Shown here in pieces: positions 40,015 through 55,664 of a stretch of DNA of 64,000 nt. This stretch comes from an uncultured bacterium (lineage in GTDB: Bacteria; Bacillota_I; Bacilli_A; RFN20; CAG-826): contig CASDXP010000001.1 in NCBI GenBank assembly GCA_949285455.1, positions 124,001 through 188,000 on the forward strand. The letters are read 5' to 3'. The notes beneath the pieces were generated by a model, which saw nothing but the letters and a program-made list of their open reading frames with translations, had not been told where the DNA came from and searched no databases. The translations under genes and the position numbers were made by a program. Each line of letters begins with the position of its first letter. Position 1 is the first letter of the stretch.

Positions 40015-42820
40015 AATATAGTGTTATGTCATTAAAGCGATCAAAATATCCTTTTATTGAAGCGGGTAGAGCGTTTGAAAGTTCGATACGCTCCTTTATC
40101 GAAATGTCTTTATTTTTGCTGAGGAGATTTGTAACTTCTCTATTAAGTTCGATATCATCTTGATAAAATGCATAGTCTTCAATAATATTACGCAAGTCGT
40201 CTCTATTTACATTGTATTCACTACTTATACTATCAAGAGCATCATTTTTTTCCTTATTGATAAATTGTTCATATTCAATAATAGGATCCTTATCGTATAG
40301 GCCTTCAATATTTTGATCCATGAATTCAGTTACGAATTTCAATAATAGTTCTTTTTTAGACTTTTCGTTAATAGAGGCAACAAGACGTATAATTTTATTT
40401 CTTGTTTTCTTTTTGTCGGTGTCATCGCCTTTTTGATATCTTCTCAATAATTCAACAAGATAATCAAAATCAACTTTAACTCTTCCTAGGAGCTCAATTT
40501 CGAAATCAATATCATTCAGAATTGATTCCCTGTTTACTAAAGGTTTCACTCTGTTGTAAATGTCTTTGTAAAGGCCTTGCAATTCATAGTATGTCTTCAT
40601 ACTAACTTCAGTGTTTTCGATATCAAAGTCAACATAATTAATAGCTTGATTGTACGTATGCATTAATTTTCTAAATAAATTAACAAACTCGGCTTGGTCC
40701 TTTTCAGAACGCGAATCTGCTAACTTTCTTTTATCTTTGCACTCTTTATAGTATTCATTAAGTCTTTTGATTAAGTCATCAAGTGGTAATAATGTAACAT
40801 CATTATAAACATCGACGTCGTTATTAAAATGTGCTAGGGCTTCATCCATCGTCGCTCTAGATGTTTGATAGCAAACAATATTACCGCAAATTTTAGTTTC
40901 ATCATAAGTTCTTATGGTTCTTGATATCGCTTGAATAAGACCATGCATACGCATGGATTTATCAAGAAAAAGTGTATTACAACGCACAAAATCCATCCCG
41001 GTGAGACATTTATCAACAACCAAAAGAATATCAAGATTCTTATTTCTAAAATTGTTGATTACATCTCTTTCATATTGAGAGTAAGTTGAAATAGAAAAAT
41101 TAGAATTGTTCTCTGGCCTTTTATTATATTCCTCGATGATTTTTTCCAATTCATCCTTAGCTATTGTTGGATCATCACCTTCTTTACAATCTTCATTTGG
41201 ATCATATGAATAAATAGCAGCTATTTTTAAATTTAATTTGTTGTTAAGCAATGCTTTGTAGTATTTAATTAAAAGTTTGATGGATTGACAAGCAAAAATG
41301 GCATTGTATTTTTTATTTGCTGTCTTGCTTTCATAGTGCTCAAGTAAATCATTAACGACGATATTAATTCTTTTATCATTTAAGAGGGCTTCCTCATAGT
41401 CAATGCCCTGCACTCGCTTATCTAACTGAGTCATTACACCATCTTTAAGCTTTATGGTATTAATATAGTCAATACAAAGTGGAAGAACGTTTCGGTCTCC
41501 AATTGCTTCCTTCAAAGTGTACGTGTGCACCGGCTTACCAAAATACAAAGAAGTAAGTTTAGCATTTTCTGTGACTTCATCTTCTTCGGTAAAAATAGGT
41601 GTTCCTGTAAAACCATAATATAAAGCGTTTGTGAAGTATCGCTCAATTACCTTTCTCATCTCACCTGCCTGTGAACGATGACATTCATCAAACATAAAGA
41701 TAATTTTTTTATTTTTGAAAGGAAGTAATCTATCAACATTTCTTCCTTTTAGAGCATTAGACATCTTGTTGATGGTAGAAATAATTAACTTTTTGTTAGA
41801 TTCAATATCCTTTATCAATGAATCGGTTTTTTTGACATTCGTAAATTCTTCCAACGTGGAAGACATATAAGAGTTAAAATCGTCAACTGTCTTATCATCT
41901 AAATCTTTTCTATCGACAAGGAAAAAAACTTTGTCCACTTCTTTCCTCAACGACATTGCAAAGGCGAATTTAAATGAGGTTAGTGTTTTACCTGAACCAG
42001 TAGAATGAAAGCAATAGCCGTTAGCGTTGCTCTTGAGGCATCTATTTTTCAAAGCCTCAAAAGCATAGATTTGGTATGGCCTCATGACGAATAGTTTCTT
42101 TTGTGAAGCACTATCAATCATATAATTGAAAACTAATTTAAATAAAAACGGGCAAAACAAAAACTCCTCTTCAAAATCATAGAGAAGATTGACGTTTTCG
42201 TTTTCCATGTCGGTCCACACGAAACAATTGCTCTTTTTTATATCTGTATCATTATTAGCGAAATAGCGCGTGTGTTGTTCATTAGAAATGACGAAAATTT
42301 GTATAAAATTAAATAATCCTTTGTAATTTCCGTCGCGTTTATATCGGAGAACTTGGTTAAAAGCTTGATTGATTTCAACGCCGGGCTTTTTAAGTTCTAT
42401 TTGAACAAAAGGAAGACCGTTTAATAAGAGGGTAACATCAAAGCGTCCAGTGTATTTACCGCTAACAGTGATTTGATGTGCAACTTCGAAATGATTCTTC
42501 TCTATATCGTCGAGATCTACGAGTTTAAGATAAACGGGGTATCCATCTCTTTTAATTATATCTATTTTTCCAGTTCTTAAAATTTGAGAAGCCTCAAAAA
42601 CACTCTTATTTTCTAAATAGATACAAATATTCTTAAACTCATCGTTAGTTAATTCTTCTCCGTTTAACTTTTCCTTGTTCAATTCATTAAGATGTTTTCT
42701 AAAATTACTTTTTAATTCTTCGTAGCTAGAAATTGCGCTGTAGCGGTACCAATTGCGTTGAATTATTTCTATAAATTTTTTCTCAACATCATATTCAGTT
42801 GTATAATCGCTGTTATGCAT
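40013..42820 (-). CDS. hsdR: Type I restriction endonuclease subunit HsdR
   Basis: The 935-residue motor-nuclease has an N-terminal PD-(D/E)XK domain with GRFDVTLLLNGLPFVQIELKK, a Walker A FHSTGSGKTLTSF near residue 275, a DECH box (MFDECHRSQ) and later helicase motifs such as TGMDFVRCN and QAISRTIRTY. It cuts DNA unmodified at sites set by HsdS after ATP-driven translocation. The ATG five codons into the open frame is used because it lies 8 bases after GGAGG. It is the first gene of the leftward hsdR, half-S, hsdM, hsdS operon. Confidence 0.96.
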   Translation of the reverse strand: MHNSDYTTEYDVEKKFIEIIQRNWYRYSAISSYEELKSNFRKHLNELNKEKLNGEELTNDEFKNICIYLENKSVFEASQILRTGKIDIIKRDGYPVYLKLVDLDDIEKNHFEVAHQITVSGKYTGRFDVTLLLNGLPFVQIELKKPGVEINQAFNQVLRYKRDGNYKGLFNFIQIFVISNEQHTRYFANNDTDIKKSNCFVWTDMENENVNLLYDFEEEFLFCPFLFKLVFNYMIDSASQKKLFVMRPYQIYAFEALKNRCLKSNANGYCFHSTGSGKTLTSFKFAFAMSLRKEVDKVFFLVDRKDLDDKTVDDFNSYMSSTLEEFTNVKKTDSLIKDIESNKKLIISTINKMSNALKGRNVDRLLPFKNKKIIFMFDECHRSQAGEMRKVIERYFTNALYYGFTGTPIFTEEDEVTENAKLTSLYFGKPVHTYTLKEAIGDRNVLPLCIDYINTIKLKDGVMTQLDKRVQGIDYEEALLNDKRINIVVNDLLEHYESKTANKKYNAIFACQSIKLLIKYYKALLNNKLNLKIAAIYSYDPNEDCKEGDDPTIAKDELEKIIEEYNKRPENNSNFSISTYSQYERDVINNFRNKNLDILLVVDKCLTGMDFVRCNTLFLDKSMRMHGLIQAISRTIRTYDETKICGNIVCYQTSRATMDEALAHFNNDVDVYNDVTLLPLDDLIKRLNEYYKECKDKRKLADSRSEKDQAEFVNLFRKLMHTYNQAINYVDFDIENTEVSMKTYYELQGLYKDIYNRVKPLVNRESILNDIDFEIELLGRVKVDFDYLVELLRRYQKGDDTDKKKTRNKIIRLVASINEKSKKELLLKFVTEFMDQNIEGLYDKDPIIEYEQFINKEKNDALDSISSEYNVNRDDLRNIIEDYAFYQDDIELNREVTNLLSKNKDISIKERIELSNALPASIKGYFDRFNDITLY

Positions 42821-42835
42821 ATTTGATTCCTCCAA

Positions 42836-43189
42836 AAAAGCAACTTATGTAAATTGTATTTCAGTATAATATTAGCATCTATTTGATTTCATTTGAATAT
42901 TTTTTAAAAAATGGTTGCATAACATTTCCAATATTCTAGATGTTCCATAAAAACTAGCGGTGCAGAGGCTTTTTCTATTCCAAACTTTAAAAAGCGTAGG
43001 CTTACGACCACAAATTCGACATCATTAATTTATGATTGCAAAAGTATAAGACTTTTCCAAAATCCAATATAGATACTTGAAATATTGTGTCAATTATTTA
43101 AGAAATAAATTTGTGAGAGCCAACACACAATTTATTTTATCTTTGTAATATAACAACGCTTTTATCAATATATCTTTGTGGTTGCATGA
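42836..43189. other. AT-rich intergenic region with the hsdR promoter
   Basis: No gene is seen here. On the reverse strand TGCTAATATTATAC near 42870-42883 could supply the hsdR -10 box. A short CGTA/TACG hairpin lies near 43000. Otherwise nothing stands out. Confidence 0.4.
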
Positions 43190-43804
43190 TTATTTCAAAA
43201 AATATTTGTAAAAGCACTCATTAACGGCTTCAATATAGCAAATAAACGAAGGATGATTGTCATCTCGTTGCTTTAGATACATATTTTTCTTGTCTAAATA
43301 ACATTTTCGTACTTCTTCCCATAAATTTTTATCTTTTAAGTGCTTTGCTTTTACAGATGATTTGCCAGAATGAGGGGCTTTGTTCCAATAATACCGATCG
43401 TTCTTTACTATGCCTGTCTTTTTATGAATTAAACGATGCCAATCACCGTTAATATCTTTCATTACAATGCAAACATCCATGCTGAACTTGAGATTAGGTT
43501 CATCTTTAAAATTAATCGGATAGGTAGTTAACGAAGAAGTGGAATCTTGAATGTCTCTTAAACCTTGTTTTTTCATTATCGTATTTAGGCACTTTCTAAT
43601 TGTTTCTTTTAAAAATCTACAATCATAAATGTCATCACATTTTTGAATTAGCAAATTATAGTCAAAATCAATACTACCGTTTCCATTTTGGGTAACCAAA
43701 TTTCTAGCACCGATTCCAACCAAAATATATTGAGTGCTTATGCCTTTTTCTAAAAGTAATTTTACTAATTCTTTGAGGTCGGACGCACATGATGTTTGTG
43801 CCAT
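43190..43804 (-). CDS. Putative nucleotidyltransferase-fold protein
   Basis: The 204-residue protein has GIGARNLVTQ followed after a short gap by SIDFDYNLLI, a G...DxDxN arrangement like the G[GS]...[DE]x[DE] motif of nucleotidyltransferases, with another acidic strand (FSMDVCIVM) about 75 residues later. This is a pattern match, not proof. Its place next to the restriction locus and its own strong promoter are consistent with a defence role, such as AbiE-like or CD-NTase-like enzymes. No partner toxin or effector is adjacent. Confidence 0.5.
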   Translation of the reverse strand: MAQTSCASDLKELVKLLLEKGISTQYILVGIGARNLVTQNGNGSIDFDYNLLIQKCDDIYDCRFLKETIRKCLNTIMKKQGLRDIQDSTSSLTTYPINFKDEPNLKFSMDVCIVMKDINGDWHRLIHKKTGIVKNDRYYWNKAPHSGKSSVKAKHLKDKNLWEEVRKCYLDKKNMYLKQRDDNHPSFICYIEAVNECFYKYFLK

Positions 43805-43904
43805 TTTTAAAAAGTCCTATCTTTCACAAAATGATACATAAAAATCTCCTAATTTTTTTCATACCAACCATTTGAATTATATATCGAATACTTCAAATCG
43901 TTAA

Positions 43905-43933
43905 ATTATTAATAAAAGTCGAACCATTGTCAA
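43905..43933 (-). promoter_or_regulatory. Promoter of the nucleotidyltransferase-like gene
   Basis: On the reverse strand a perfect TTGACA (43933-43928) is followed after 17 bases by AATAAT (43910-43905). The leader to the ATG would be about 95 bases. An inverted-repeat-like GTTAACGTTTAAC lies about 20 bases upstream of the -35 box. Confidence 0.6.
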
Positions 43934-43984
43934 CAACTATTTTTACTTTTTTAAAACTTGTTAACGTTTAACACCGATGGGCTT

Positions 43985-44224
43985 TTAATCACCGCTTATC
44001 TCATGTCCTGCTTTAGCGGTTATCATCATTCGCATCCTTTTATTAAATTCAATCTTGTCAACATTCAACTCAAATTTATCTTTCCCCACTTCCACAATCA
44101 CTTTATCTTTAATCAACATTTCTAACACTTCACGAGCTTTCTTATAACCAAATCCGAAACTCTTTTGAAGATAAGAAATACTTAAATATTTCGTTTTATC
44201 AACAATTTTATTTATCATATTCAC
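43985..44224 (-). CDS. FtsK-gamma-like winged-helix protein
   Basis: The 79-residue protein reads LSISYLQKSFGFGYKKAREV, then LIKDKVIVEV, which matches the pattern of the DNA-binding gamma domain of FtsK/SpoIIIE (a winged helix with SxxLLQRxFxIGYxxA). It stands alone without the motor domain. It overlaps the membrane-protein gene by 4 bases and ends the WYL-nuclease operon, so it may direct that system to DNA. Confidence 0.6.
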   Translation of the reverse strand: MNMINKIVDKTKYLSISYLQKSFGFGYKKAREVLEMLIKDKVIVEVGKDKFELNVDKIEFNKRMRMMITAKAGHEISGD

Positions 44225-44646
44225 TCTAATGTATCTAAAAATAATTGGTGTGATTTTTCTTTAATTAAGCGCTTATTATCATCGTAAATAAGAACATCGT
44301 ATTTTTCTAAAATGTTCCAGATGTCCTTGCGATCAAATCTTTTATCAAAAACGTGAACTGTATAAAGAGGTGCGCCATTTAGATAGCCTTGACGAGTAAA
44401 ACTAATCTTAGAACGTTTGATACCATTTCTAACTAAATCGAGTTTAACTTCATACATCCACTTCTCTTCCCCTTTTATTAATCCTTGTTGATATTTCTTA
44501 TCTTCTTGCATAAATTCTATTTTCTTCGCTAATTTGAAAGAGAAATATATTATTAATATAAAAACGCAAAGTGCACTTATTAAAGCTAATCCATATTCAT
44601 CAAAAAATGAATTGAAACTATAACTATTTTTATTATCGTTTTTCAT
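44221..44646 (-). CDS. Single-helix membrane protein of unknown function
   Basis: The 141-residue protein has a membrane helix at about residues 18-42, then a short coiled part, then a soluble cytosolic domain (DLVRNGIKRSKISFTRQGYL) that I do not recognise. It lies 18 bases after a PolC-like gene and overlaps the winged-helix gene by 4 bases. In defence operons such proteins often act as membrane effectors; here that is only a suggestion. Confidence 0.5.
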   Translation of the reverse strand: MKNDNKNSYSFNSFFDEYGLALISALCVFILIIYFSFKLAKKIEFMQEDKKYQQGLIKGEEKWMYEVKLDLVRNGIKRSKISFTRQGYLNGAPLYTVHVFDKRFDRKDIWNILEKYDVLIYDDNKRLIKEKSHQLFLDTLE

Positions 44647-44664
44647 TTCTTCGTCCTTTCTTTT

Positions 44665-45303
44665 TTAATATCTAACTTTTAAATTTCTTAAAACTCTAAA
44701 ATATAAATCACGCTTATAAGTCAAAAAATAAAATAAATATAATCCAAGAATTGTATGTAAAAGCACTTCTTTTCTAGAAAAAAGATAATTAATTTTTAAG
44801 GTGTAATCTTTTCCCCAACTTTCATATTTCTTTGGAAACTTATGTCCTTTAATCTTCGTTTTAAATTCTTCATCAAATTGATTTGCTTTTATCTTACAAA
44901 TTAATGTTTCCTCATCTATTTTAAAATAATCAATCAAATCATCTTGATTCGTGGGAATTTCGTAAACACTCATCTCTTTTACTAAATTTTCAATGTTATT
45001 CGTGTAAGTACCATTTGATATGGCAATACCAACTAGAACAGATAATTCCTTCACCGTCTTAGGATTAAATACATTCACTAAGGCTATAAAGAAGTTTGAA
45101 GAAAATAAGCCTAAGCTTTCATCTTCCACTTCTTTTGATTCTTTTAATAACTCAATAAGAGAATTTAAATCAATTTCATCTAATCTTGTATGGGTAACTT
45201 TTCTAAGTTTATCTAAAATGTGCAAAGTCTTTCCTAAGTTAATAATTTTTCTTGTTTCTTTTCGAGTTTTATTCACTAATGCGTCAAATTCTTTTTGTTT
45301 CAT
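44665..45303 (-). CDS. Small protein resembling the C-terminal region of PolC (copy 2)
   Basis: I find no named family for this 212-residue protein. However, NPKTVKELSVLVGI, then NGTYTNNIENLV, then NQDDLIDYF follows in order the PolC pattern PKTFSELVxISGLSHGT, NAxELI, RDDIMVYL. The end (YESWGKDYTLKINYLF, then YFLTYKRDLYFRV) resembles the PolC segment WYIDSCKKIKYMFPKAHA...YY. The catalytic aspartates of the polymerase palm are absent, so it cannot polymerise. The likeness is from memory of the family, not an alignment. Confidence 0.4.
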   Translation of the reverse strand: MKQKEFDALVNKTRKETRKIINLGKTLHILDKLRKVTHTRLDEIDLNSLIELLKESKEVEDESLGLFSSNFFIALVNVFNPKTVKELSVLVGIAISNGTYTNNIENLVKEMSVYEIPTNQDDLIDYFKIDEETLICKIKANQFDEEFKTKIKGHKFPKKYESWGKDYTLKINYLFSRKEVLLHTILGLYLFYFLTYKRDLYFRVLRNLKVRY

Positions 45304-45345
45304 TTTATTGCTCCTCGCTAATGTTTTTAACTTAAATATTTATAT

Positions 45346-45900
45346 TTATTGCAACTGATTAGGATAATAATATTTATAGAATGCTAAAGAGTAGATATAA
45401 CTTGCTTCACTACATGAAGTCGTATAATTCGTTAGTGATCTAATGTTTTTAATCCATTCTACTTCTTCTTTACCTATATCACTTGATTCTAGTAAAAGTA
45501 TTTCCCATTCGTGAAGATTACCTAAATCAGCGATAATTCTTTTAGAACTTTCTAAACATATTTCTTTATCCAAAAGATAGGTAAGTAATTCGTCTTTATT
45601 GCTAAATAAAAAACTCTTTTTATCTTTTAATATTTTCATTACTAATTTAAAAGAAAAATAATGAGAATTTAAAATGGAAATAATGAACACTAAATCATCA
45701 AATTCTTTTGCTTCTATAATAGCCGCTAATGAATAAAAGATATCTGGATTTAGATTTAAATATTCGTCAATATTGAAATCATTATCTTTTCTAAAGATAT
45801 AATCCAAAACTTTTGGATCATCTTTAGGAATATTTTTAAAATCAAATCCTGTTACTTTACTTAAACTGGCGAGTTTCTTAAAATAAATATTATCGTGCAT
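45346..45900 (-). CDS. Small protein resembling the C-terminal region of PolC (copy 1)
   Basis: The 184-residue protein reads YFKKLASLSKVTGFDFKNIP, then KDDPKVLDYIF, which follows the PolC pattern LxxLTGIDPKTIPxDDPxVxxLF. Later come SNKDELLTYLL, then EWEILLLES, EEVEWIKNI and CSEASYIYSLAFYKYYYP, matching in order the RDDIMVYL, EWEEEM, WYIDSCKKI and [22 protein letters not shown] segments. It and the next gene look like divergent, polymerase-dead relatives. The start 6 bases after GGGGTG is preferred to one five codons earlier. Confidence 0.42.
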   Translation of the reverse strand: MHDNIYFKKLASLSKVTGFDFKNIPKDDPKVLDYIFRKDNDFNIDEYLNLNPDIFYSLAAIIEAKEFDDLVFIISILNSHYFSFKLVMKILKDKKSFLFSNKDELLTYLLDKEICLESSKRIIADLGNLHEWEILLLESSDIGKEEVEWIKNIRSLTNYTTSCSEASYIYSLAFYKYYYPNQLQ

Positions 45901-45945
45901 TTCTTCACCCCACATCGTTACTTATTAATATAAATAACACATGTA

Positions 45946-45961
45946 TTAGGTCTTAAAATGG
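45946..45961. promoter_or_regulatory. Putative WYL-regulator operator, internal copy
   Basis: TTAGGTCTTAAAATGG lies 46 bases before the first PolC-like gene. It matches a motif before the WYL gene at 15 of 16 bases, in the same orientation. Confidence 0.5.
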
Positions 45962-45988
45962 CACAATGAAAAAAAATAATTTGTTTTT

Positions 45989-46927
45989 TTAATCTTTTAC
46001 ACCTAAATATTTCAAATATTCATCCGCTGGCATCGTATTTTTATCATTAGAAACTTCTTCAGTGCGACCATCAATTCTAATGAATAGATGGAATTTTATT
46101 TTTTCAACAAAATGTTTTTTTAATTTTTCACTATTTAAAATCTTCAAAGTATCTTTGATAGTGTGAACAATATTTTTTTCTATTTCTGATTCTTTAACGA
46201 GTGAATCTTTCTTTGGCAAACAATAATAATAAATTAAATGCGAAGTTAAATTTTTATTTCTATTTTTTTCTATTCCCATCAAATGTGCACAAAATTGTTT
46301 AAAATCGAAGCCGCTATTTTCTTCGATACCTACACCGCTTGTTTCAAACTTAATATAGCCTTTGGAAGTAAACCAATCTTTAAATTCATCTTTGCCGACA
46401 AAAAGATTAAGTTTTTTATCAAAATATCTTTCACTTAGTGCTTTCTTATGGGTATCGAAAAATTCATGGCATTTACATTCGAAAAAATATTCACTTTTCT
46501 TCGTTTTAAAATAAGCATCTAAATGCGCGGTCGCACCTTTATTACCTGATATTATATTTAGATCTTTTTCGAAATGGATTTGTTCGCTAATTTCAACATT
46601 ATCTTCTTCAATTTTACGTGCAAAATATTTGTAGCCATCATTTCTCAATGAAAAGAAACAAAAACTAGAGCTAGAACCAATTGATAAGAATTTAGGAGGC
46701 ATAGACCCTTTTTCTTTCAGTTCTTGACCGCTACCGCTCTCATACTCTTTTAAATGACCACTCTTTTCTAATTCATTTTTAATTTCTTTAGATTTTTCTT
46801 TATTAAAATAATTCGTATAGTTCTTATGAATTTCATAGCCAAAATAGCTAGCCTTTATATCATCGTTTCCAATGTAATCTTTCTTTAATATTTCATCATA
46901 TTTTTTCTTTAAATCTTTTTTATTCAC
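45989..46927 (-). CDS. Putative PD-(D/E)XK nuclease
   Basis: The 312-residue protein has ATAHLDAYFKTKKSEYFFEC followed by KCHEF near residues 132-157: an Asp, a strand, then E-C-K, the D...ExK pattern of restriction-type nucleases of the PGN_0703-like group. Its N-terminus is charged and helical. The start is a GTG 1 base after the WYL gene; the AAGGAG site lies inside the last codons of that gene, so they are translationally coupled. A DNA-cutting effector is the most likely role, inferred from motif and context. Confidence 0.6.
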   Translation of the reverse strand: MNKKDLKKKYDEILKKDYIGNDDIKASYFGYEIHKNYTNYFNKEKSKEIKNELEKSGHLKEYESGSGQELKEKGSMPPKFLSIGSSSSFCFFSLRNDGYKYFARKIEEDNVEISEQIHFEKDLNIISGNKGATAHLDAYFKTKKSEYFFECKCHEFFDTHKKALSERYFDKKLNLFVGKDEFKDWFTSKGYIKFETSGVGIEENSGFDFKQFCAHLMGIEKNRNKNLTSHLIYYYCLPKKDSLVKESEIEKNIVHTIKDTLKILNSEKLKKHFVEKIKFHLFIRIDGRTEEVSNDKNTMPADEYLKYLGVKD

Positions 46928-46928
46928 T

Positions 46929-47816
46929 TTATTTGCTCCTTATAGTATTCAAATATTTTTCTAGATAAGCGATGTATTTGGTTTTAAATTCATCATTCAA
47001 AATAACATAATCCTCTGCGGGAATACGAAACAATGGATAAAATAATTCGTTTTCACTATTAGATGAGACTTTAAATTCTAATCCATCAGCCTTACCTTTC
47101 CCTTCAAAATATTTAATAAATTTTTCTAAAGCGTTTCTATCTTTACAACTCACCTTTAAAGTCGTTTTTTCATTCGTTAGTTTAATACCATAATCATTTA
47201 AGGAACTTTGCAAATATTTTTCCATTATTTCGTCTTTTTTAAATTTCTTTTGAAACACGATCTTATTAATAAACGCTACATTGTAAATTTTTAATTTATT
47301 ATCATTCAGACCATATAAATAATAAGAATGGTTCGAGTAAATAATTTTATATGGCTCAACAATTATTTTTGCATTTATATTTTTATACCTAAAGGCAATG
47401 GAAAAGCTCTGCTTCATTGCATTGACGATATCGCACAAATTATCTAATGTTTTTGTAGATAAATCATTATCGCCTTCAATAAATTTTGTTGAAACATAAT
47501 TTGGTAATTCTTTTAAACTATCTTCTACTTTTTGATTATGTTTCATCGAAAGCAAGATCGCCAAAGATATATTAGGCATTAATAATAAATTTTCATCTAG
47601 CGGATCTTGCAACATATACCCGCCATTAGATCCCCTCTTCGTTTCAATATAAAAACCAGATAAATCTAAATCGTAAAGATAACGCCTAACGTGTCTTGAT
47701 GAATTATAATCTAAATCTAGATAATCTAAAATTTCATCTAGCTTCGTGTATCTATTATTTTTCTTTCTCTCATTTAAAAAATAAAGGACTTGTAATTCTT
47801 GGGATATTTTTGACAT
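46929..47816 (-). CDS. Helix-turn-helix WYL-domain regulator
   Basis: The 295-residue protein starts MSKISQELQVLYFLNERKK, a winged helix of the DeoR/HTH_11 type, with RHVRRYLYDLDLSGFYI. A WYL domain follows (IVEPYKIIYSNHSYYLYGL) with a C-terminal extension. WYL proteins bind ligands, often nucleic-acid pieces or nucleotides, and commonly control defence genes. The start is the ATG after GAGGAGG; an upstream in-frame ATG ten codons earlier lacks a site. A 16-bp motif 36 bases upstream recurs inside the operon. Confidence 0.88.
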   Translation of the reverse strand: MSKISQELQVLYFLNERKKNNRYTKLDEILDYLDLDYNSSRHVRRYLYDLDLSGFYIETKRGSNGGYMLQDPLDENLLLMPNISLAILLSMKHNQKVEDSLKELPNYVSTKFIEGDNDLSTKTLDNLCDIVNAMKQSFSIAFRYKNINAKIIVEPYKIIYSNHSYYLYGLNDNKLKIYNVAFINKIVFQKKFKKDEIMEKYLQSSLNDYGIKLTNEKTTLKVSCKDRNALEKFIKYFEGKGKADGLEFKVSSNSENELFYPLFRIPAEDYVILNDEFKTKYIAYLEKYLNTIRSK

Positions 47817-47851
47817 GTTCTTCCTCCTCAAGTTAAATTTTAACAAATAAT

Positions 47852-47867
47852 TTAGGACTTAAAATGG
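47852..47867. promoter_or_regulatory. Putative WYL-regulator operator, promoter copy
   Basis: TTAGGACTTAAAATGG lies 36 bases before the WYL gene and differs at one base from the copy at 45946. The positions suggest autoregulation and control of the downstream part of the operon. Confidence 0.5.
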
Positions 47868-47962
47868 AAGAAATGTATTTATGATAAAAGTTCTTACAAA
47901 CTAATATTCAAAATATTAAAAACTATCTTCTTATAGATAATTTATGAAAACCCCTACTTGTC

Positions 47963-48427
47963 TTATTTTTCACTTTTATTTTGTTTTCTAACGTCTTTAT
48001 ATTTTGCTGGACTAGCTTTGATATATTCACCATTAATGGAAAGTTTAATGCTTCTAAATTCACCAAATTCAGCGAATACTTTATTACCGTTTTCATCTAC
48101 GTATTCAATATCAGGCGCAACGAAGAAATTAGGAAAGCGTTTAAGTAGTTTATTTTCTTCGAATAGTTCGACGATAAAATTTCCTTTAAAAGCGTAATAT
48201 ACCTTTCCATTACCATCGAATTTTTTTACGCATGGAATTAATGAGAGCGGAAAAGCTGCTAAAAACAAGATAAATATGACGACAAAAGCTATTAATATTG
48301 CCAAAATTGCAATGTTTTTAGGATATAATCCTAACAAGAGCATAAAAATTACCGTAATCACTAAGCTTATAGCAAGACCAATCCCAGTTACTAACCTAGT
48401 AACAAATAAATGTTTAATTCTTCTCAT
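47963..48427 (-). CDS. Two-helix membrane protein of unknown function
   Basis: The 154-residue protein has two adjacent membrane helices (about 13-35 and 40-65) and a cytosolic beta-rich domain (NGKVYYAFKGNFIVELFEEN). I do not recognise the family. It stands alone, 146 bases upstream of the WYL gene and 82 bases downstream of the methyltransferase fusion. Confidence 0.55.
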   Translation of the reverse strand: MRRIKHLFVTRLVTGIGLAISLVITVIFMLLLGLYPKNIAILAILIAFVVIFILFLAAFPLSLIPCVKKFDGNGKVYYAFKGNFIVELFEENKLLKRFPNFFVAPDIEYVDENGNKVFAEFGEFRSIKLSINGEYIKASPAKYKDVRKQNKSEK

Positions 48428-48509
48428 ATGTTTTCATCCCCTATTTTTTAAGATACATGCATTATATCGTTTTTGTTTATTCTTAAAAAGTGACTATGAT
48501 TAAAAACAT

Positions 48510-50927
48510 TTAAATTAACTTAACAAATTTTGAATTGATGTGTTCCATTCTTTTAATCGTAACATCTTGGCAGATATTAGACTCATTATTAGAAATGAGA
48601 ATATAATGCCTATTCCCACCATCTTCTTGATTTAACTCTTCGACTGCTTGCCCCACTGTACCGCTCCCAGCGAAAAAATCTAACACTAAGGAGGTTTTAG
48701 ATGTCGTAGCCCTGACGAGTTCTTTCATCAATTTGACAGGCTTAGGAGTAGAAAAATAAGTACGGTCACCAAAAATTTGAGCGATTTCATCTTTTGCAGA
48801 TGAAGTCGTACCAAAACAATCGAACACTTCCGGTAATTCGCTAAGGCTTTCTTTTAATACATCTCCTTCGATGTATGGCTGATTAATTTTATTAAATTTG
48901 TTTTCTTTGCCTTTCTTACAAATGATAATGTTTTCAAAATCGGTTTGAACTTTATTTGGATTTAACACTACTCTATTCGCATCGAAGAAAGGATGTTTTT
49001 TCTTCCATTTGTGAACGCTGATGTTTTCTTCACCGAAAATAGACTTAGAAATATTGATTAAATTTTCTAATTCGCCATCATCGATATTAATTATTAAAAA
49101 CCCTTCTTTACTTAATAAAGAATACGCTAATTGCATTCTTTGTTTCATAAATAAGGCATAGCCTTCTTCGTAATTTTCATCTTTGTAACCGATGTAATCA
49201 ATATGAGAATTATAAGGAGGGTCAATGAGGATAGCATCAATCTTATTTTTGTAAGCTTTTTGCATCGATTTCAAAGAATATAAATTCTCTGATTCGATGA
49301 CGTAATTTGAACGTTCATCCCTTATCTTAATATCTAGATGACAATTCGCAAACGCATTATTGTCCACGATTGTTTCTTTATAAATAGAAATCGATTTCAA
49401 ATCAGAGCAATAAGCAAAAGCCCATTCCCCAATATAAGTTATTAAATCACTACAATACACTTCTTTTAAATTTGAACAATTTGTGAAGCACGATTTATTG
49501 ATAAGACTTACATTACGTAAATTAATTGCGGTCATAAGACTGCAGCCTGAAAACGCTCCTCTTTCCAAAGTAGTGACACTATCTCGAAGATGAACTTCAC
49601 CTACAGCTTTCCAATTAGGATAACAAATAATTTTTGAGCAATCTTCATTATATAAAACATCATCGATGACTTTAAATTTAGAACTTCGGCTCTCAAAATG
49701 TATATTTTTACAAGCGACGAAAGGATTATAACCAATATCTTCTAAACTTGAAGGAAAAACAATTTTACTAATACCTTCACAATTCCAAAAGGAATTTCGG
49801 TTGATAGTTTTAACTCCTTCTGGAATGATGAGATTATCGCTTTTAATCTTTCTTAATGCCCCGACAATGGAAGTTTTATAGCGATTGTAAATGATATCGT
49901 TTTCAACGTGATAGGCATCGCTTAGACAAATAAGATTTAATTTCGTACAGCCTGAGAAAGGGTTATTTTCCATTTTTAAAAGGGAGCGTGGCAAGACAAT
50001 TTCTTCGAAGCGGTCGCATAAATAAAAAGCATGCTTTCCAATTATTTTAATACCTTCTTCTATTCTTAATTTTGTTTCTGATTCATGAATAGAGCAATAG
50101 ATTAATTGCTCTTTATCTCTTGAATAAAGAATACCATTTTCATAAATGAACATCTTCGATTCATTTCTAATTTGAACATTTAAGCACCCAGCAAAAGGAT
50201 TATTACCAATAAAATTAACGTTTTTGGGGATGTTTACTTTCTTTAAATTCTGGCAATTGTAAAAAGTATCTCCACCCATATTTTTCAAAGAATTAGGTAA
50301 GACTACTTCTTCGATTGTTTGATTATCCCAAAATAAAGCTGGCTCTAATGATTCGACACCCTCTGGAACGATAACTTTTCTATCGTGGCCTAGATATTTA
50401 ATTGCAGTCGTCTCATCGAAAATAAAATCATCATTTTGAAAATCAATAATTTGTTTCTTTTTAAAATGTTGTTCATCATTTTTTTCTTCAAATAAGCCGT
50501 AATCATAAAGTTCACCATTAAAAGCAAATTTACTTTTATATTCAACCACACCACTCATCAGTCGAGATTTATAAAAACATTCGTTATTTTTAATAACTTT
50601 TGGAAATGTTTCATCCCAAACGATGAAATGAACATGAAAATTTTTGAAGAAGAGATGATCTTGATAAATTTCAAACTCATCGAAATAATAGCCTAATAAT
50701 AAAAGTCTATCTAAACATTCCAAAGCGACGAAACTTTCGTGCGTATCTAATTTAAAAAGTTCTTTTTCTTCACAATACAATATTTGTTTATCAACATCGA
50801 TTTTTAGCTTTATTCCAACCAAATATTGTTTTTCAAATATATTCTCATCTGTTTCAAGGAAACGTAAAGCCCAATATAAAGCTGTATACTTCATATTTTG
50901 ACTTAATCTTAAATCACCTAACGCCAC
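48510..50927 (-). CDS. Leucine-rich-repeat (BspA-type) fused to an N6-adenine DNA methyltransferase
   Basis: The 805-residue protein has three parts. Residues 1-190 are an unknown N-terminal region. Residues about 190-555 hold at least ten LRR_5/BspA repeats, such as IEEVVLPNSLKNMGGDTFYN and LKKVNIPKNVNFIGNNPFAG. Residues 560-805 are a beta-class methyltransferase with ILIDPPYNSH near 567 and, later, LDFFAGSGTVGQAV near 750, the order seen in type III Mod enzymes. BspA repeats usually lie on secreted proteins, but here there is no signal peptide. The GTG start has GAGGA 8 bases upstream and overlaps the kinase gene by 14 bases. The repeats may act as a protein- or DNA-binding platform. Confidence 0.85.
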   Translation of the reverse strand: MALGDLRLSQNMKYTALYWALRFLETDENIFEKQYLVGIKLKIDVDKQILYCEEKELFKLDTHESFVALECLDRLLLLGYYFDEFEIYQDHLFFKNFHVHFIVWDETFPKVIKNNECFYKSRLMSGVVEYKSKFAFNGELYDYGLFEEKNDEQHFKKKQIIDFQNDDFIFDETTAIKYLGHDRKVIVPEGVESLEPALFWDNQTIEEVVLPNSLKNMGGDTFYNCQNLKKVNIPKNVNFIGNNPFAGCLNVQIRNESKMFIYENGILYSRDKEQLIYCSIHESETKLRIEEGIKIIGKHAFYLCDRFEEIVLPRSLLKMENNPFSGCTKLNLICLSDAYHVENDIIYNRYKTSIVGALRKIKSDNLIIPEGVKTINRNSFWNCEGISKIVFPSSLEDIGYNPFVACKNIHFESRSSKFKVIDDVLYNEDCSKIICYPNWKAVGEVHLRDSVTTLERGAFSGCSLMTAINLRNVSLINKSCFTNCSNLKEVYCSDLITYIGEWAFAYCSDLKSISIYKETIVDNNAFANCHLDIKIRDERSNYVIESENLYSLKSMQKAYKNKIDAILIDPPYNSHIDYIGYKDENYEEGYALFMKQRMQLAYSLLSKEGFLIINIDDGELENLINISKSIFGEENISVHKWKKKHPFFDANRVVLNPNKVQTDFENIIICKKGKENKFNKINQPYIEGDVLKESLSELPEVFDCFGTTSSAKDEIAQIFGDRTYFSTPKPVKLMKELVRATTSKTSLVLDFFAGSGTVGQAVEELNQEDGGNRHYILISNNESNICQDVTIKRMEHINSKFVKLI

Positions 50928-51495
50928 GTTTATATTCCTCTAGAATTATATCCACTACTTCTTCGACGCTTAAATCAGTGGAATCAATTAAAATATAAGG
51001 CAAACGATATTTTTTGCAAAAATAAAGCATCTTACGATAAATTTCTTCAGATTTGTGCACTTTATTGATGTCATCAACAATTTTGTCTCTATTTCTAATT
51101 CTTCTAACTATAACGCTTTCTTTTGCATAAAGAATTACGGTTAAATCAGGCTTAGGTGTTTTCTTTACTAACAAAGCGTAAATATCTTCATTATCCTTCG
51201 TTCCACTCCAAGCATAATTAGAAGCAAGATGACGATCAGTGACGATATTAACATCTTTAAATCTATCGAAGATATAGACGTTACCAAGCCCGTAGAATAA
51301 GGAAGTAAAGTTACGATCTTCACTCGCGTTTACCATATTTCTTATGCGGAGATATTCTTCAAAAGAAGAAGCATCTTTATCGAATAAATAATGCAAAGGT
51401 TTTTCAATAAATTTGTAGCCAAGTTTTTTAGCTAAGAGTTGGCAAGTAGTCGTCTTTCCAACGCCATCCATGCCTTCAATTGATATATGGTGCAT
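50914..51495 (-). CDS. dTMP kinase-like deoxynucleotide kinase
   Basis: The 193-residue protein has a P-loop (EGMDGVGKTTTCQLLAKKLG) at residues 7-26, a DRH motif (VTDRHLASNYAW) near residue 87 and a lid region with RRIRNRDK. These place it with thymidylate or deoxynucleoside kinases, in the cytosol. It overlaps the phosphoesterase gene by 20 bases and the methyltransferase fusion by 14, in an operon that makes deoxynucleotides. It is more divergent than a housekeeping Tmk, so it may be a second enzyme; the nucleotide used is not certain. Confidence 0.82.
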   Translation of the reverse strand: MHHISIEGMDGVGKTTTCQLLAKKLGYKFIEKPLHYLFDKDASSFEEYLRIRNMVNASEDRNFTSLFYGLGNVYIFDRFKDVNIVTDRHLASNYAWSGTKDNEDIYALLVKKTPKPDLTVILYAKESVIVRRIRNRDKIVDDINKVHKSEEIYRKMLYFCKKYRLPYILIDSTDLSVEEVVDIILEEYKRGVR

Positions 51496-52039
51496 CTTTA
51501 TTTTTCTCCTTTATAGTGATAAGTTCATCTAACGTACGTGGTTTAAATCCTATGACATCCACTCCTGCATTATATGCAGGTTTATCTTTATAATATTCTT
51601 TCATCTGGGCATAAGCTGGGCCATTAAGTGCGGTCTTATTATGGATGTGACCATACACTAAGATCCCTTCTCTATTAAATTCCATCCAATCCATCAAAGG
51701 ATAATGACAAAGACATACTTTCCTACCATTATCGATGATGAGCTTGATAAATGAAATATCTAAAAAGAGGCGTGATTCTTCATATAATTTCTCAAGTTTT
51801 TCGTCGTGATTACCAACAATCAAATATTTCTTTCCTTTAAGTTTCCTTAAAATGTCGATGACACCAGTAAAATTATCTTCCGCAACATCACCTAAAATGT
51901 AAACATCATCATCGTCATTCACTCTGCTATTCCAATTATCGATAATAAGTTCACGATATTGTTCTATACTATATTCCCGATGACATTTTTTAAACACTAA
52001 CAGATCATCGAAATGAATATCTGCAATGTAATAAATCAT
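51476..52039 (-). CDS. Calcineurin-like metallophosphoesterase
   Basis: The 187-residue protein has all metal motifs of the family in order: YIADIHFDD near residue 4, ILGDVAED, IVGNHDEKL, LCHYPLMDW and YGHIHNKT. It should be an active dinuclear phosphoesterase. The target is unknown; family members of this size cut nucleotides or phosphodiesters. It lies 2 bases after nrdD. Confidence 0.88.
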   Translation of the reverse strand: MIYYIADIHFDDLLVFKKCHREYSIEQYRELIIDNWNSRVNDDDDVYILGDVAEDNFTGVIDILRKLKGKKYLIVGNHDEKLEKLYEESRLFLDISFIKLIIDNGRKVCLCHYPLMDWMEFNREGILVYGHIHNKTALNGPAYAQMKEYYKDKPAYNAGVDVIGFKPRTLDELITIKEKNKDAPYIN

Positions 52040-52041
52040 GA

Positions 52042-53736
52042 CTAATTAGCCCTCCTTGTCTTCGCTTCGTGTTTTTTTCCACTCGTAAAATAATCTTCGA
52101 TTTCAAGATAACCACTCACGCGACGAATGCGAGTAATATCTTTGCTTCCACAAATGGGGCAAACATCAAAAGTTCCTGACGTTCCGCAATTGTTACAAAC
52201 ATCTTTAGGATAATTAAATCCTAAGTAATGTACGCCTGCCTTGATAGCAATTTCCACTAGTTCATCTAAACCTTCATCATTCCCTAATGGTGCTTCTTGA
52301 AGCTCAACATAGGTAATGCAGCCACCATTCGCATAAAGATGAAACTTACCTTCTAATTCAATCTTTTTATATGCTGGTAAATTCGAATCCACATTGACGT
52401 GAAAAGAATTCGTATAGAATGATTTATCTAAACATGGATGCTGATATTTTTTCTTATCAATTTCGATAAATCTTCCGCTAATTAGTTCGCCACTCGTCGC
52501 TAACAAAGAAAAATTAAGATGATATTGCTCGATCAATTTATCAGCGTATTCCCTCATAAATTTAACGAAGTCTAACGCAAGAACGTAATATTTTTCATCT
52601 TCGTAATATCTTTTTTTGCTCAGTATTTCTATTGCTTCACTAAGGCCGATAAAGCCTAAAGATAAAGTTCCATGTTTGAACGTGCCTTCAAGCCCTACTT
52701 CATTGATATCTTCACAAGTGAGGTGATATTTTCTATTCGTGGGGAATAGATTGATATCACTATGGCATGTTTTATGGTAACGATCTAACAAAATATCTTT
52801 AGTAATTGAAGCCACTTCTAACCATTTTGCTTTAAATAATTCATACTTTTCTTCTAGAGAAGTATTAGGTTTTAATTCAATCGTTTCTAATGCTAAACGA
52901 GGAAGATTTATTGATATATTATCAATATTGCTTCTTCCTATAGCACCTTCTTTGCCAAATATATCTGCGACAACACGCGTTCTACAACCCATGATTGATA
53001 ATTTATATGGATCAGTTTTTTTATCTGCTTCGCAATCGCAAAGTAGATAAGTTGGAATCATTTTTTTAGCGGTGCAAAGCAAAGCTTTTCTTAATAAATC
53101 AAAATTAGGATCTTGAGAAAATCTATTGGCTCCTCTATGCACTTTAAAAACGATGTTAGGCTTATAAATAAGATTATTAGAGTGATAGAAAGAATCGATG
53201 AAAGTTGCAGTTAAGAATCTAGCAAAATCGTCCGTTCCAAGCCCCATGCAAAATGTGACGTAATAACTAGTTTGGCCCATGCGCGTATGCATTTCATTAC
53301 ACCATATAATAAGCGAACTAATGCAGGCTCTAAATAAGCTTTCATTATTTTTATAACTCACACCTAATTCAGTAAAAATCTTCGAAAAATCGATATCGAA
53401 ATTCGCAAATGACATCCCACCACTTTGCTCATTTCCAACTTTAGCTAATAACTCTTTGATAAAATCAAAGACACCAACGATAATATAACTTGTCTCTTTT
53501 CCTTTAAAGTTTTTGTAGGGAAAAGCGTTTAAAATATCGAAAGTAAGACAATTATAGGTTAAACCATAAGCATCTAAATCATGGATATGAATATAACCCT
53601 CTTCGTGCAATTTTGCCCAAGCAGGATTTAAAGAATTTAATATTTTTCTTTTATAGTCTTTTTCACCTACGTTATAAACATAACCAACGTAGCTCTTACG
53701 ATTTGCAGCATTGTCGTTTTTATTTTGATTTTTCAA
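52042..53736 (-). CDS. nrdD: Anaerobic ribonucleoside-triphosphate reductase
   Basis: This glycyl-radical enzyme reduces NTPs to dNTPs without oxygen. The 564-residue protein contains IHIHDLDAYGLTYNC with the active-site Cys, and at the C-terminus a zinc site (CNNCGTSGTFDVCPIC) and the glycyl-radical segment RVSGYLE. The usual N-terminal ATP-cone is missing (about 700 residues in E. coli), so dATP inhibition through that domain is lost; short forms resemble phage T4 NrdD. The TTG start has GAGGTG upstream and overlaps nrdG by 17 bases. Confidence 0.93.
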   Translation of the reverse strand: MKNQNKNDNAANRKSYVGYVYNVGEKDYKRKILNSLNPAWAKLHEEGYIHIHDLDAYGLTYNCLTFDILNAFPYKNFKGKETSYIIVGVFDFIKELLAKVGNEQSGGMSFANFDIDFSKIFTELGVSYKNNESLFRACISSLIIWCNEMHTRMGQTSYYVTFCMGLGTDDFARFLTATFIDSFYHSNNLIYKPNIVFKVHRGANRFSQDPNFDLLRKALLCTAKKMIPTYLLCDCEADKKTDPYKLSIMGCRTRVVADIFGKEGAIGRSNIDNISINLPRLALETIELKPNTSLEEKYELFKAKWLEVASITKDILLDRYHKTCHSDINLFPTNRKYHLTCEDINEVGLEGTFKHGTLSLGFIGLSEAIEILSKKRYYEDEKYYVLALDFVKFMREYADKLIEQYHLNFSLLATSGELISGRFIEIDKKKYQHPCLDKSFYTNSFHVNVDSNLPAYKKIELEGKFHLYANGGCITYVELQEAPLGNDEGLDELVEIAIKAGVHYLGFNYPKDVCNNCGTSGTFDVCPICGSKDITRIRRVSGYLEIEDYFTSGKKHEAKTRRAN

Positions 53737-54175
53737 TGTGAATCACCTCTTTGAAGACTTGATTAGTCGAACCGACATAAGGAGTTGTCGTCGTATGTAG
53801 TAAATGCATATAAGGACCGTATTTAACATATTTTAAATATTTGAGAATATTATATGGAACATCTTTTAAATCTCTACCAGTATAAAGACAAATGTCGAAA
53901 TCTGTTAATTTTTCTAGAAGTTCTTCTAAAGCTCTAATCTGTAATAAGGGCTCGCCACCGCTTATCGTTAACTTCTTATTTTTGCATTTCTCACGAATCA
54001 TCTTTTCCAATTCATTAACGCTAATTGATGTGCCAGCATGTATGTCCCAAGTTCTTTTATTGTGACATCCTTCACAGTGCTTATCGCAACCTTGTAAGAA
54101 TAAAACGGTACGATAGCCTGGGCCATCGCAAAGTGATGGCCTTGGCATTAATGAATTAATTAATATATTCGTCAT
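53720..54175 (-). CDS. nrdG: Anaerobic ribonucleotide reductase activating enzyme
   Basis: NrdG makes the glycyl radical in NrdD. The 151-residue protein carries the radical-SAM motif CDKHCEGC near residues 30-37, the NrdG start DGPGYRTVLFLQGC and the AdoMet motif ISGGEPLL. It is upstream of nrdD, the reverse of the common nrdD-nrdG order, and overlaps its neighbours on both sides. Confidence 0.95.
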   Translation of the reverse strand: MTNILINSLMPRPSLCDGPGYRTVLFLQGCDKHCEGCHNKRTWDIHAGTSISVNELEKMIREKCKNKKLTISGGEPLLQIRALEELLEKLTDFDICLYTGRDLKDVPYNILKYLKYVKYGPYMHLLHTTTTPYVGSTNQVFKEVIHIEKSK

Positions 54176-54620
54176 CGTATATCTCCCAGAGCAATAAATC
54201 GTAATTGGAGCAATCTCGTCTAGTTAGTTCGTCTAAGATATTATTCTTTTTCTTTGTATATAATACTCTATCTAGACGTCTTATTTTAGATATCTTTTTG
54301 TCATTTTTGGTAACAACTTTTTCTAAGACGATTCTTTCATCTAAGTTTTCGATCAAATTCTGCTGTTGTTTATTTTTACAACGGAGGTAGGGATCAGAAC
54401 TATTGACCTTTTGAAGCCTACAATATTCATTTTTATCAATTTCTCGACAATTGATGATAGCAAATTTTTGATGATGTTTAACTCTAGCTATCGATCTAGC
54501 TTTCGCACTTGCTTCGCGACCATTCGTGGCGGCAACCGGAAATGTGATGGGAATATATTTATTTCTTCCTACGTGACCGCATTTGCAGATTACTGCGTAA
54601 TATTTAATTGGATTTTGCAT
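54156..54620 (-). CDS. Small zinc-ribbon-like protein heading the nrdGD operon
   Basis: I do not recognise a named family for this 154-residue protein. Its N-terminus, YYAVICKCGHVGRNKYI, holds a CxCGH motif, with a further Cys in AIINCREI and later in RRDCSNYD, so metal binding is possible. The C-terminal half is very basic. It has an AAAGGAGAC site and is first in the operon, overlapping nrdG by 20 bases. A regulatory or accessory role for the reductase is an inference. Confidence 0.55.
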   Translation of the reverse strand: MQNPIKYYAVICKCGHVGRNKYIPITFPVAATNGREASAKARSIARVKHHQKFAIINCREIDKNEYCRLQKVNSSDPYLRCKNKQQQNLIENLDERIVLEKVVTKNDKKISKIRRLDRVLYTKKKNNILDELTRRDCSNYDLLLWEIYDDEYIN

Positions 54621-54682
54621 AAGTTTAGTCTCCTTTCGACTATAACCATATTTTCTATCATATCAAAAATAAAGTTTTTCAC

Positions 54683-54707
54683 TATTTCACAATTTTTTTG
54701 TGTAGAA
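54683..54707. promoter_or_regulatory. Dyad in the divergent promoter region
   Basis: CACAA and TTGTG arms, five bases apart (54688-54702), lie between the divergent nrd operon and the WYL-like gene. The sequence does not match the NrdR box. It could be a binding site for the WYL-like protein. Confidence 0.35.
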
Positions 54708-54773
54708 AAGTTATAATTTTATCACGAAATATGCAAATTTTTGTGTATAATTAGTTACAAATAGGAGCAGAAC

Positions 54774-55658
54774 ATGGAATTTAATAATCGTACAAGAATA
54801 AATTTAAGTGGCCTAGCGAAGAAAATATTAGAGAAAGATATTTTTATTTTCAACGCAGATGAACAAAAGCAAATTGGAACTTACATCAATAAAGTTTTAC
54901 ATGCTTTTACAAAAATAGAAATACCAGTCGACAATAATCTCGCCAAAGAAAAAGGTACTTCCGAAGTCTATTATATTAATGATAAAAATATCGATTGGTT
55001 CGTTAGTTGTGCCTCACAAACGAAAGCCTATAAAGAAAGAGAGGATGATTCTTCATCCACCTTCTTTAAAGTGATAATTGAAAGCTACTGTCGCCTTCCT
55101 TATCCTGAAAGAGCGAATTTTATCTTGCACGAATGTATTCAAAACATTGAAACCGCTATTGCTAGACAAACGAAAATAACTTTAGAAACATATAACAAAT
55201 TAATGAAAGTTTCGCCTTACAAAATTGTTCCTTCTAAAGATACAGTATTTACATATTTGGTCTTCAAAAATGATAAAAAATTTGATGCTATTCGCTTAAG
55301 TCTTATAAAAAGCGTCAGAGTGCTTCGTGAACTTTATCACTTTAATAAAGAAGAAATGAAACTTGTCGATAATGCTTTAATTAATTTCGGCCCTTCCTTT
55401 GCGTTTGAAAATATGACCACTATCCATATTAAGTTTTTGAATGAAGATGGCGAAAAAAGATATTTATATTCAACTTTACAAAGACCGATGCATGAAAGAA
55501 TTATCGGTAAGAACGAAAGGATTTATGAATTTAAATGTTCAGAAAAACAAATATTATATTTTTTCTTCAGCTTCGCAGGCGATATAGAAATAATTGAGCC
55601 TATAGAATTAAAAAATAGATTCAAACAAATGTATAAAGATGGGTACGAAACCGTTTGA
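54774..55658 (+). CDS. WYL-domain-like protein without a clear helix-turn-helix
   Basis: The last 45 residues (KCSEKQILYFFFSFAGDIEI, IEPIELKNRFKQMY) match the C-terminal pattern of WYL regulators, which place the operator-distal helix there. The N-terminal 100 residues (RTRINLSGLAKKILEKDIFI) show no obvious winged helix. GGAGCAG precedes the ATG and TATAAT lies about 22 bases upstream. It is divergent from the nrd operon and 20 bases before the ASCH gene, so it may regulate one or both. Confidence 0.6.
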   Translation: MEFNNRTRINLSGLAKKILEKDIFIFNADEQKQIGTYINKVLHAFTKIEIPVDNNLAKEKGTSEVYYINDKNIDWFVSCASQTKAYKEREDDSSSTFFKVIIESYCRLPYPERANFILHECIQNIETAIARQTKITLETYNKLMKVSPYKIVPSKDTVFTYLVFKNDKKFDAIRLSLIKSVRVLRELYHFNKEEMKLVDNALINFGPSFAFENMTTIHIKFLNEDGEKRYLYSTLQRPMHERIIGKNERIYEFKCSEKQILYFFFSFAGDIEIIEPIELKNRFKQMYKDGYETV

Positions 55659-55664
55659 TTGTTC

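What the first reader, a model, noticed from the sequence alone, without database searches (positions are those of the whole stretch)
48510..50927. Cytosolic BspA-type leucine-rich repeats fused to an adenine methyltransferase
BspA repeats are known mainly from secreted surface proteins. Here at least ten sit between an unknown N-terminal domain and a type III Mod-like methyltransferase (DPPY before FAGSG), with no signal peptide and no restriction gene. The repeats could replace a target-recognition domain or dock a partner. I know of no described enzyme of this design.
Basis: partly seen in the sequence, partly recalled or inferred. Interest (0 to 1): 0.76.

Follow-up and report, generated by a model that had tools for sequence, protein, structure and literature searches.

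The report
Mobile nucleotide-supply and DNA-methylation gene cassette
A DNA-methylating enzyme joined to a leucine-rich-repeat arm turns out to be the last part of an undescribed gene cassette that also carries its own anaerobic DNA-building-block factory and moves between gut bacteria (and at least one phage) into regions rich in anti-virus genes.

Summary
One open frame (48510-50927, minus, 805 aa) encodes a ~180-aa N-terminal domain, BspA-type LRRs (15 predicted strands) and a complete type III Mod-like adenine methyltransferase. The join is no artefact: about 20 other MAG loci carry the same fused gene (49-63% identity). In a sister clade, including a gut phage, the two parts are separate adjacent genes, so the fusion joins two former partner proteins.

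The gene always ends an operon: NrdG, NrdD (an accessory class III ribonucleotide reductase), often a phosphoesterase, a thymidylate-kinase-like enzyme, LRR, MTase. Kinase, NrdD and MTase accompany the LRR gene in every relative whose contig is long enough. The 25 carrier genomes checked all have another NrdD match too. The cassette is sporadic (13/279 genomes of the order), co-inherited, sits in a hypervariable hotspot, and its neighbours match defence-gene models far more than a matched control. The Mod-type recognition insertion is ~100 aa shorter than in true Mods, no Res gene is present, and the LRR carries a conserved ridge.

Most likely it is a mobile accessory system, probably defence-related, in which the LRR guides or docks a fixed-site DNA adenine methyltransferase. 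Function is inferred, not shown.

The parts
48510..50927 (-). LRR-methyltransferase fusion gene, 805 aa
   Evidence: single ORF; Pfam LRR_5 and N6_N4_Mtase; AF2 pLDDT 89.5; full-length fused relatives
50388..50927 (-). N-terminal alpha/beta domain, aa 1-180, no Pfam family; conserved MKYTALYWALRF and SRLVSG motifs
49320..50387 (-). BspA-type leucine-rich repeats, aa 181-536, 15 predicted strands; family-invariant ridge at two residues shortly before the conserved F of each repeat
49293..49337 (-). Junction, aa 531-545: where separate LRR and MTase genes meet in the Clostridia/phage clade
48510..49307 (-). Type III Mod-like beta-class methyltransferase, aa 541-805 (DPPY 49212-49223, FAGSG 48660-48674)
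48762..49007 (-). Short, conserved region in the place of the target-recognition domain, aa 641-722
50914..51495 (-). Thymidylate-kinase-like (d)NMP kinase, 193 aa; overlaps the LRR-MTase start by 14 nt
   Evidence: Pfam Thymidylate_kin 7.9e-17; found in 38 of 38 related loci
51476..52039 (-). Small calcineurin-like metallophosphoesterase, 187 aa (optional part)
   Evidence: Pfam Metallophos; 24 of 38 related loci
52042..53736 (-). Accessory class III ribonucleotide reductase NrdD, 564 aa, without the N-terminal extension of canonical enzymes
   Evidence: Pfam NRDD 1e-99; catalytic residues align with phage T4 NrdD; cassette copies group together
53720..54175 (-). NrdG-type radical SAM activase, 151 aa
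   Evidence: Pfam Fer4_12 and Radical_SAM; CxxxCxxC read in the sequence
54156..54620 (-). 154-aa protein with KCGHVG motif, unknown (optional part)
   Evidence: 19 of 38 related loci
32816..55664 (.). Variable island holding the cassette and a type I RM system; lacking in one sister genome and replaced by other genes in another

Best explanation
The gene encodes the DNA-modifying arm of a horizontally moved cassette (NrdG, NrdD, kinase, LRR, MTase; optional phosphoesterase and KCGHVG protein). SHOWN by sequence: the parts, their obligatory linkage, co-inheritance, sporadic presence, defence-rich surroundings, and that the LRR and MTase parts exist as separate adjacent genes in a sister clade. 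INFERRED: (1) the LRR arm, through its repeat-specific conserved ridge, targets or docks the MTase, doing the job of the missing Mod-type recognition insertion; (2) the MTase puts N6-methyl groups on adenine at one fixed, family-wide DNA site, because its recognition region does not diversify; (3) NrdG activates NrdD, which, having no ATP-cone for dATP shut-off, makes dNTPs beyond the normal set-point, and the kinase returns dNMPs to the pool; (4) together they act in defence or counter-defence between phages, mobile elements and their anaerobic hosts, by marking DNA and sustaining its synthesis. Steps 1-2 are fairly likely, step 3 likely from the enzyme families, step 4 the least certain.
For: Fused relatives with the same layout, 49-63% identity. 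Fused and split forms are one clade each, SH-aLRT 100; the split LRR and MTase genes overlap or abut. Linkage: kinase in 38/38 loci; NrdD missing only from two loci cut by contig ends; MTase missing only where contigs end. Co-inheritance: identity matrices correlate, r = 0.70-0.76, 0 of 5000 permutations as high. Accessory nature: every one of 25 carrier genomes has at least one further NrdD match, in most a full-length canonical one; cassette NrdDs group together in the quick tree (support only 69). NrdD active site intact against T4 NrdD. Mobility: absent from 3 same-genus genomes, 13/279 in the order; hotspot near-empty or differently filled in sisters; carried by phage PV036423; serine recombinases near several copies. 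Defence setting: 103 neighbour proteins hit 113 PADLOC families at E<=1e-8, several at 1e-106 to 1e-151, against 18 families for 91 control proteins around the host NrdD of carrier genomes. LRR as conserved (60% mean identity) as the MTase core (59-65%); recognition-like region also 60%, not hypervariable. Ridge positions -3/-2 conserved at 0.94/0.97 while exposed strand positions are at ~0.56. MTase fold Z 27.9 to Mod subunits; recognition insertion short by ~100 aa or more.
Against: No nuclease or other killing component is in the obligatory core, so a restriction-type defence is not visible. The defence role rests on neighbourhood, not on any assay; PADLOC family counts are not independent (one protein can hit many models). 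LRR targeting is inferred from conservation and fusion only; no complex was modelled and there is no DNA-binding evidence. The short recognition region resembles ordinary small MTases such as M.MboIIA, which need no helper. The methylated base and site are unknown; beta-class enzymes include N4-cytosine methylases. Nearly all relatives are MAGs, so some host names may be binning errors.
Confidence: 0.5

Rival explanations
1. Element-serving module: NrdD/NrdG/kinase supply dNTPs and the MTase protects newly made DNA from restriction, for replication of a phage or integrative element, not for host defence.
For: Many phages carry NrdD; phage PV036423 carries the whole cassette and IMG/VR contig L083 carries its upstream part up to the contig end; serine recombinases lie next to several copies.
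Against: Only 1 of 50,697 phage records has the cassette and the viral-contig scans found one truncated copy. In PV036423 it lies beside the recombinases, away from the structural genes. Typical phage NrdDs are only ~30% identical to it. No polymerase, primase or helicase is in the core.
Confidence: 0.25
2. Restriction-type or abortive defence in which the variable neighbours (DUF4238 protein, 271-aa protein, DEDDh exonuclease, others) are the effectors and the LRR-MTase marks self.
For: A DUF4238 + 271-aa + membrane-protein block precedes the cassette in about a dozen loci and a DEDDh exonuclease follows it in several; related genes accompany it on the phage.
Against: None of these is constant; the window copy has none of them; the recognition region is conserved rather than diversified as expected in an RM arms race.
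Confidence: 0.15
3. An accessory metabolic operon for anaerobic growth; the MTase is an epigenetic regulator and the LRR a structural spacer.
For: NrdD active site intact; the hosts come mostly from anaerobic gut and rumen samples.
Against: Hosts already have their own NrdD; distribution is sporadic and in a hotspot; the LRR ridge is strongly conserved.
Confidence: 0.1

Closest known systems
Type III restriction-modification Mod subunits (Mbo45V 7dsu, Mod 6k0w, EcoP15I 4zcf)
   Same: MTase fold Z 27.5-27.9, DPPY before FAGSG, DGGNR stretch
   Different: recognition insertion ~100-130 aa shorter, no Res partner, N-terminal LRR arm instead of the Mod N-terminus
BspA-type LRR surface proteins (4gt6, 4h09, 4fs7, PcpA)
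   Same: repeat consensus and fold
   Different: no visible signal peptide, joined or paired with a DNA methyltransferase, family-invariant ridge
Class III ribonucleotide reductase NrdD/NrdG (phage T4, host copies)
   Same: active-site residues, zinc cysteines, NrdG next door
   Different: 564 aa without the N-terminal extension, second copy in the genome, fixed partnership with kinase and LRR-MTase
Prokaryotic viperin systems with nucleotide kinase
   Same: radical SAM protein plus thymidylate-kinase-like enzyme; PADLOC hits of the kinase to VakA and weak ones of NrdG to pVip
   Different: radical SAM protein is an NrdG beside an NrdD, not a viperin; LRR-MTase present

Membership tests
Type III restriction-modification system | Mod-type beta-class adenine MTase core | tested here: met
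   PADLOC MTase_III 1.5e-46; Z 27.9 to Mods
Type III restriction-modification system | Res helicase-nuclease gene next to mod | tested here: not met
   no Res homologue (blastp and phmmer with an E. faecium Res) among neighbours in the related loci and the window
Type III restriction-modification system | Long target-recognition insertion between motifs IV-VIII and X-I | tested here: not met
   DPPY to FAGSG 179-185 aa in 25 sequences against 284 (E. faecium Mod) and about 300-318 (PDB Mods)
Orphan beta-class DNA methyltransferase | complete catalytic motifs | tested here: met
   DPPY and FAGSG conserved
Orphan beta-class DNA methyltransferase | acts alone, no obligatory partner genes | tested here: not met
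   kinase in 38/38, NrdD in all loci not cut by contig ends
Orphan beta-class DNA methyltransferase | methylates adenine N6 in a DNA motif | not testable with these tools
   needs methylome data
BspA-like secreted surface protein | LRR_5 repeats | tested here: met
   Pfam 1.8e-49
BspA-like secreted surface protein | signal peptide or cell-wall anchor | tested here: not met
   read by eye in the sequence, no predictor available; the C-terminus is the MTase
Class III ribonucleotide reductase (the cassette's NrdD) | glycyl-radical Gly, two active-site Cys, four zinc Cys, NrdG activase next door | tested here: met
   N62-C63, C251, G542, C514/C517/C526/C529 aligned with T4 NrdD and invariant in six cassette copies
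Known anti-phage defence system (PADLOC 2023) | matches a described multi-gene system | tested here: inconclusive
   MTase hits type II/III MTase models; kinase hits PDC-M51B and VakA; NrdD hits none; newer catalogues not available

The most novel reading that the evidence does not exclude
A new class of mobile defence or counter-defence system in anaerobes that couples its own dNTP synthesis (oxygen-sensitive glycyl-radical RNR plus kinase) to DNA adenine methylation aimed by a leucine-rich-repeat specificity arm, with BspA LRRs in place of a DNA methyltransferase recognition domain.
Probability: 0.35. Interest if true: 0.9.

Novelty: categorically new. Interest (0 to 1): 0.77.

Why it matters
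All component families are known, but I found no described system that ties a ribonucleotide reductase to a DNA methyltransferase, nor a leucine-rich-repeat arm on a DNA methyltransferase. The strict linkage across Bacilli, Clostridia and Spirochaete MAGs and one phage means the parts very likely work together. The split relatives make the LRR-as-specificity-subunit idea directly testable with two purified proteins and a methylome. If defence is confirmed, it would add nucleotide supply plus methylation as a strategy; if it serves the element, it shows how mobile DNA equips itself in anaerobes.

Tried and rejected
Assembly join or missed stop: rejected. Unique oddity of one genome: rejected, it is a family. 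Phage core gene module: scans of viral contigs with three alignments of cassette proteins (LRR-MTase, split LRR, kinase) gave only one truncated cassette contig; the NrdD scan gave that same contig and otherwise unrelated phage NrdDs. Plasmid-borne copies: none with 80% or more coverage. Type III RM membership: no Res, no long recognition insertion. Fold of the 154-aa KCGHVG protein: confident model (pLDDT 88) but best PDB match only E 0.09 (ribosomal proteins), not significant. N-terminal domain: no Pfam or NCBIfam family; the whole-model fold searches are dominated by the LRR and MTase, so its fold is untested. The careful NrdD tree did not finish; the quick tree was used, with long viral branches. 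Literature searches found no description; the library holds open-licence papers only.

Full report
OBSERVATION. The window encodes, on the minus strand at 48510-50927, one uninterrupted 805-aa frame. Pfam finds LRR_5 (1.8e-49) and N6_N4_Mtase (1.7e-34, aa 563-781); the first ~180 aa match nothing. An AlphaFold2 model built from 32 relatives has pLDDT 89.5 and pTM 0.82, with an N-terminal alpha/beta domain, 15 LRR strands and a methyltransferase. Solved-structure matches split cleanly: BspA-like surface LRR proteins for the middle, type III Mod subunits for the end, no chain with both.

THE JOIN IS REAL, AND ITS HISTORY IS VISIBLE. Five of 95 related genomes hold full-length co-linear relatives at 51-62% identity, and a scan of genome contigs gave 36 loci, mostly from Bacilli, Clostridia and Spirochaete MAGs (some are the same genomes as). 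In nine relatives the LRR protein (~530-558 aa) and the MTase (~276-292 aa where complete) are separate adjacent genes; these are Clostridia-type MAGs at 41-44% identity and the gut phage NatCom_17901 (PV036423). Fused and split forms each make one clade (SH-aLRT 100). Two partners that fuse in one lineage are a classic sign of physical association (general knowledge, inference here).

THE OPERON. Gene maps show the same order almost everywhere: (regulator) - KCGHVG protein - NrdG - NrdD - phosphoesterase - kinase - LRR - MTase, with overlapping or abutting genes. A direct tblastn table over 38 loci finds the kinase in 38, NrdD in 36, NrdG in 34 and the MTase in 32; the missing ones are at contig ends. 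The phosphoesterase (24) and the KCGHVG protein (19) are optional. Pairwise identities of LRR, NrdD and kinase correlate (r 0.70-0.76, 0 of 5000 permutations), so the cassette is largely inherited as a block; L029 is an exception, with a fused LRR-MTase but NrdD and kinase nearest the split clade, which suggests module exchange.

THE RNR IS ACCESSORY. The window's genome has a canonical 802-aa NrdD elsewhere plus the 564-aa cassette NrdD; the same-genus genomes without the cassette have one or none. All 25 carrier genomes checked have at least one further NrdD match besides the cassette copy, in most a full-length one with about 600-660 bits. The cassette enzyme aligns with phage T4 NrdD over most of its length, keeping N62-C63, C251, G542 and four zinc cysteines. 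It lacks the N-terminal extension in which the ATP-cone of canonical enzymes lies (lengths; the consequence, loss of dATP shut-off, is inference from the family).

MOBILITY AND SETTING. Presence is sporadic: 13 of 279 genomes in the order, 10 of 56 genera. In sister genome G003 the aligned flanks of the window's island (window 32688 and 57384) are 136 bp apart; in G002 the same place holds 8.35 kb of other genes, among them two helicase-like proteins and an AAA ATPase (names by my reading of the sequences). The island (32816-55664) also holds a type I RM system. Of proteins near the cassette in other genomes, 103 hit 113 PADLOC families at E<=1e-8, with very strong hits (type II REase, PDC-S01, PDC-S23, SoFic, CARF; also AriA, AbiLi, PtuA, GajA); 91 proteins around the housekeeping NrdD of carrier genomes hit 18, some of them expected housekeeping look-alikes. 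This is the main evidence for a defence connection; it is circumstantial. Phage carriage is rare: 1 of 50,697 phage records.

THE METHYLTRANSFERASE AND THE LRR. The MTase is closest to type III Mods but its motif IV to motif I distance is 179-185 aa in all 25 sequences measured, against 284 in an E. faecium Mod and about 300-318 in PDB Mods. No Res homologue was found near any copy. The recognition-like stretch is as conserved (60% mean identity) as the catalytic parts, unlike RM recognition domains in an arms race, and the LRR is equally conserved (60%) while the N-terminal domain is at 41%. In each LRR with the F..C turn, the positions 3 and 2 residues before the conserved F, ordinarily variable surface positions in BspA repeats (own knowledge, not tested on a control family), are nearly invariant across the family (0.94 and 0.97) yet differ from repeat to repeat, while the exposed strand positions are variable (about 0.56). 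That is the pattern of a specific binding ridge rather than a mere spacer; what it binds is unknown.

MECHANISM. I commit to an accessory mobile cassette in which the LRR targets or docks a fixed-site adenine methyltransferase and the NrdDG/kinase genes sustain dNTPs, most likely in phage/mobile-element conflict (confidence 0.5 overall; architecture and linkage above 0.95). The strongest rival is a module that serves the element's own replication. A classical type III RM system is excluded by tested features. Nothing here shows methylation, the site, or protection; the first experiments are listed under next steps.

NOVELTY. No open-licence paper found describes the fusion or the cassette, and the cassette proteins match no described multi-gene system in PADLOC 2023 as a set. 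Since each known system considered fails on a tested defining feature, I rate the cassette categorically new in composition, while stressing that its parts are known families and its function is unproven.

Noticed in passing
window 32923-42835: Type I RM system with several hsdS copies in both orientations, a tyrosine recombinase and a perfect 37-nt inverted repeat (33832-33868 / 37718-37754): looks like a phase-variable specificity shufflon.
   Followed up: no
window 54156-54620 and L028, L039, L041 etc.: 154-aa KCGHVG...GKEAA...PRVKHDHKDAI protein, conserved in half of the cassettes, confident model, no significant fold match.
   Followed up: partly
L039:2211-5719 and about a dozen loci: Three-gene block (DUF4238, 271-aa protein, membrane protein) upstream of the cassette, partly also on phage L082; possibly a separate Abi-like unit.
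   Followed up: no
L028:12424-13395, L030:12426-13556: DEDDh exonuclease with an extra C-terminal region directly after the LRR-MTase gene in several loci.
   Followed up: no
L029: Mosaic cassette: fused LRR-MTase but NrdD and kinase closest to the split clade.
   Followed up: partly
L042 genome (G107) and L045 genome (G110): G107 has two cassette-type NrdDs; G110 has an extra 716-aa NrdD scoring like the cassette type.
   Followed up: no
L048:7145-8878: NrdD of a Mycoplasmataceae MAG is broken into three frames while the kinase stays readable; decay or another genetic code.
   Followed up: no
window 46929-47846 and 54774-55658: Two WYL-type proteins flank the cassette; 45989-46927 is a possible nuclease with only a weak Cas4 hit.
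   Followed up: no
L082 4496-8813 (phage PV036423): The phage also carries two other DNA methyltransferase genes with a PAPS reductase between them, reminiscent of a DNA sulphur-modification unit.
   Followed up: no
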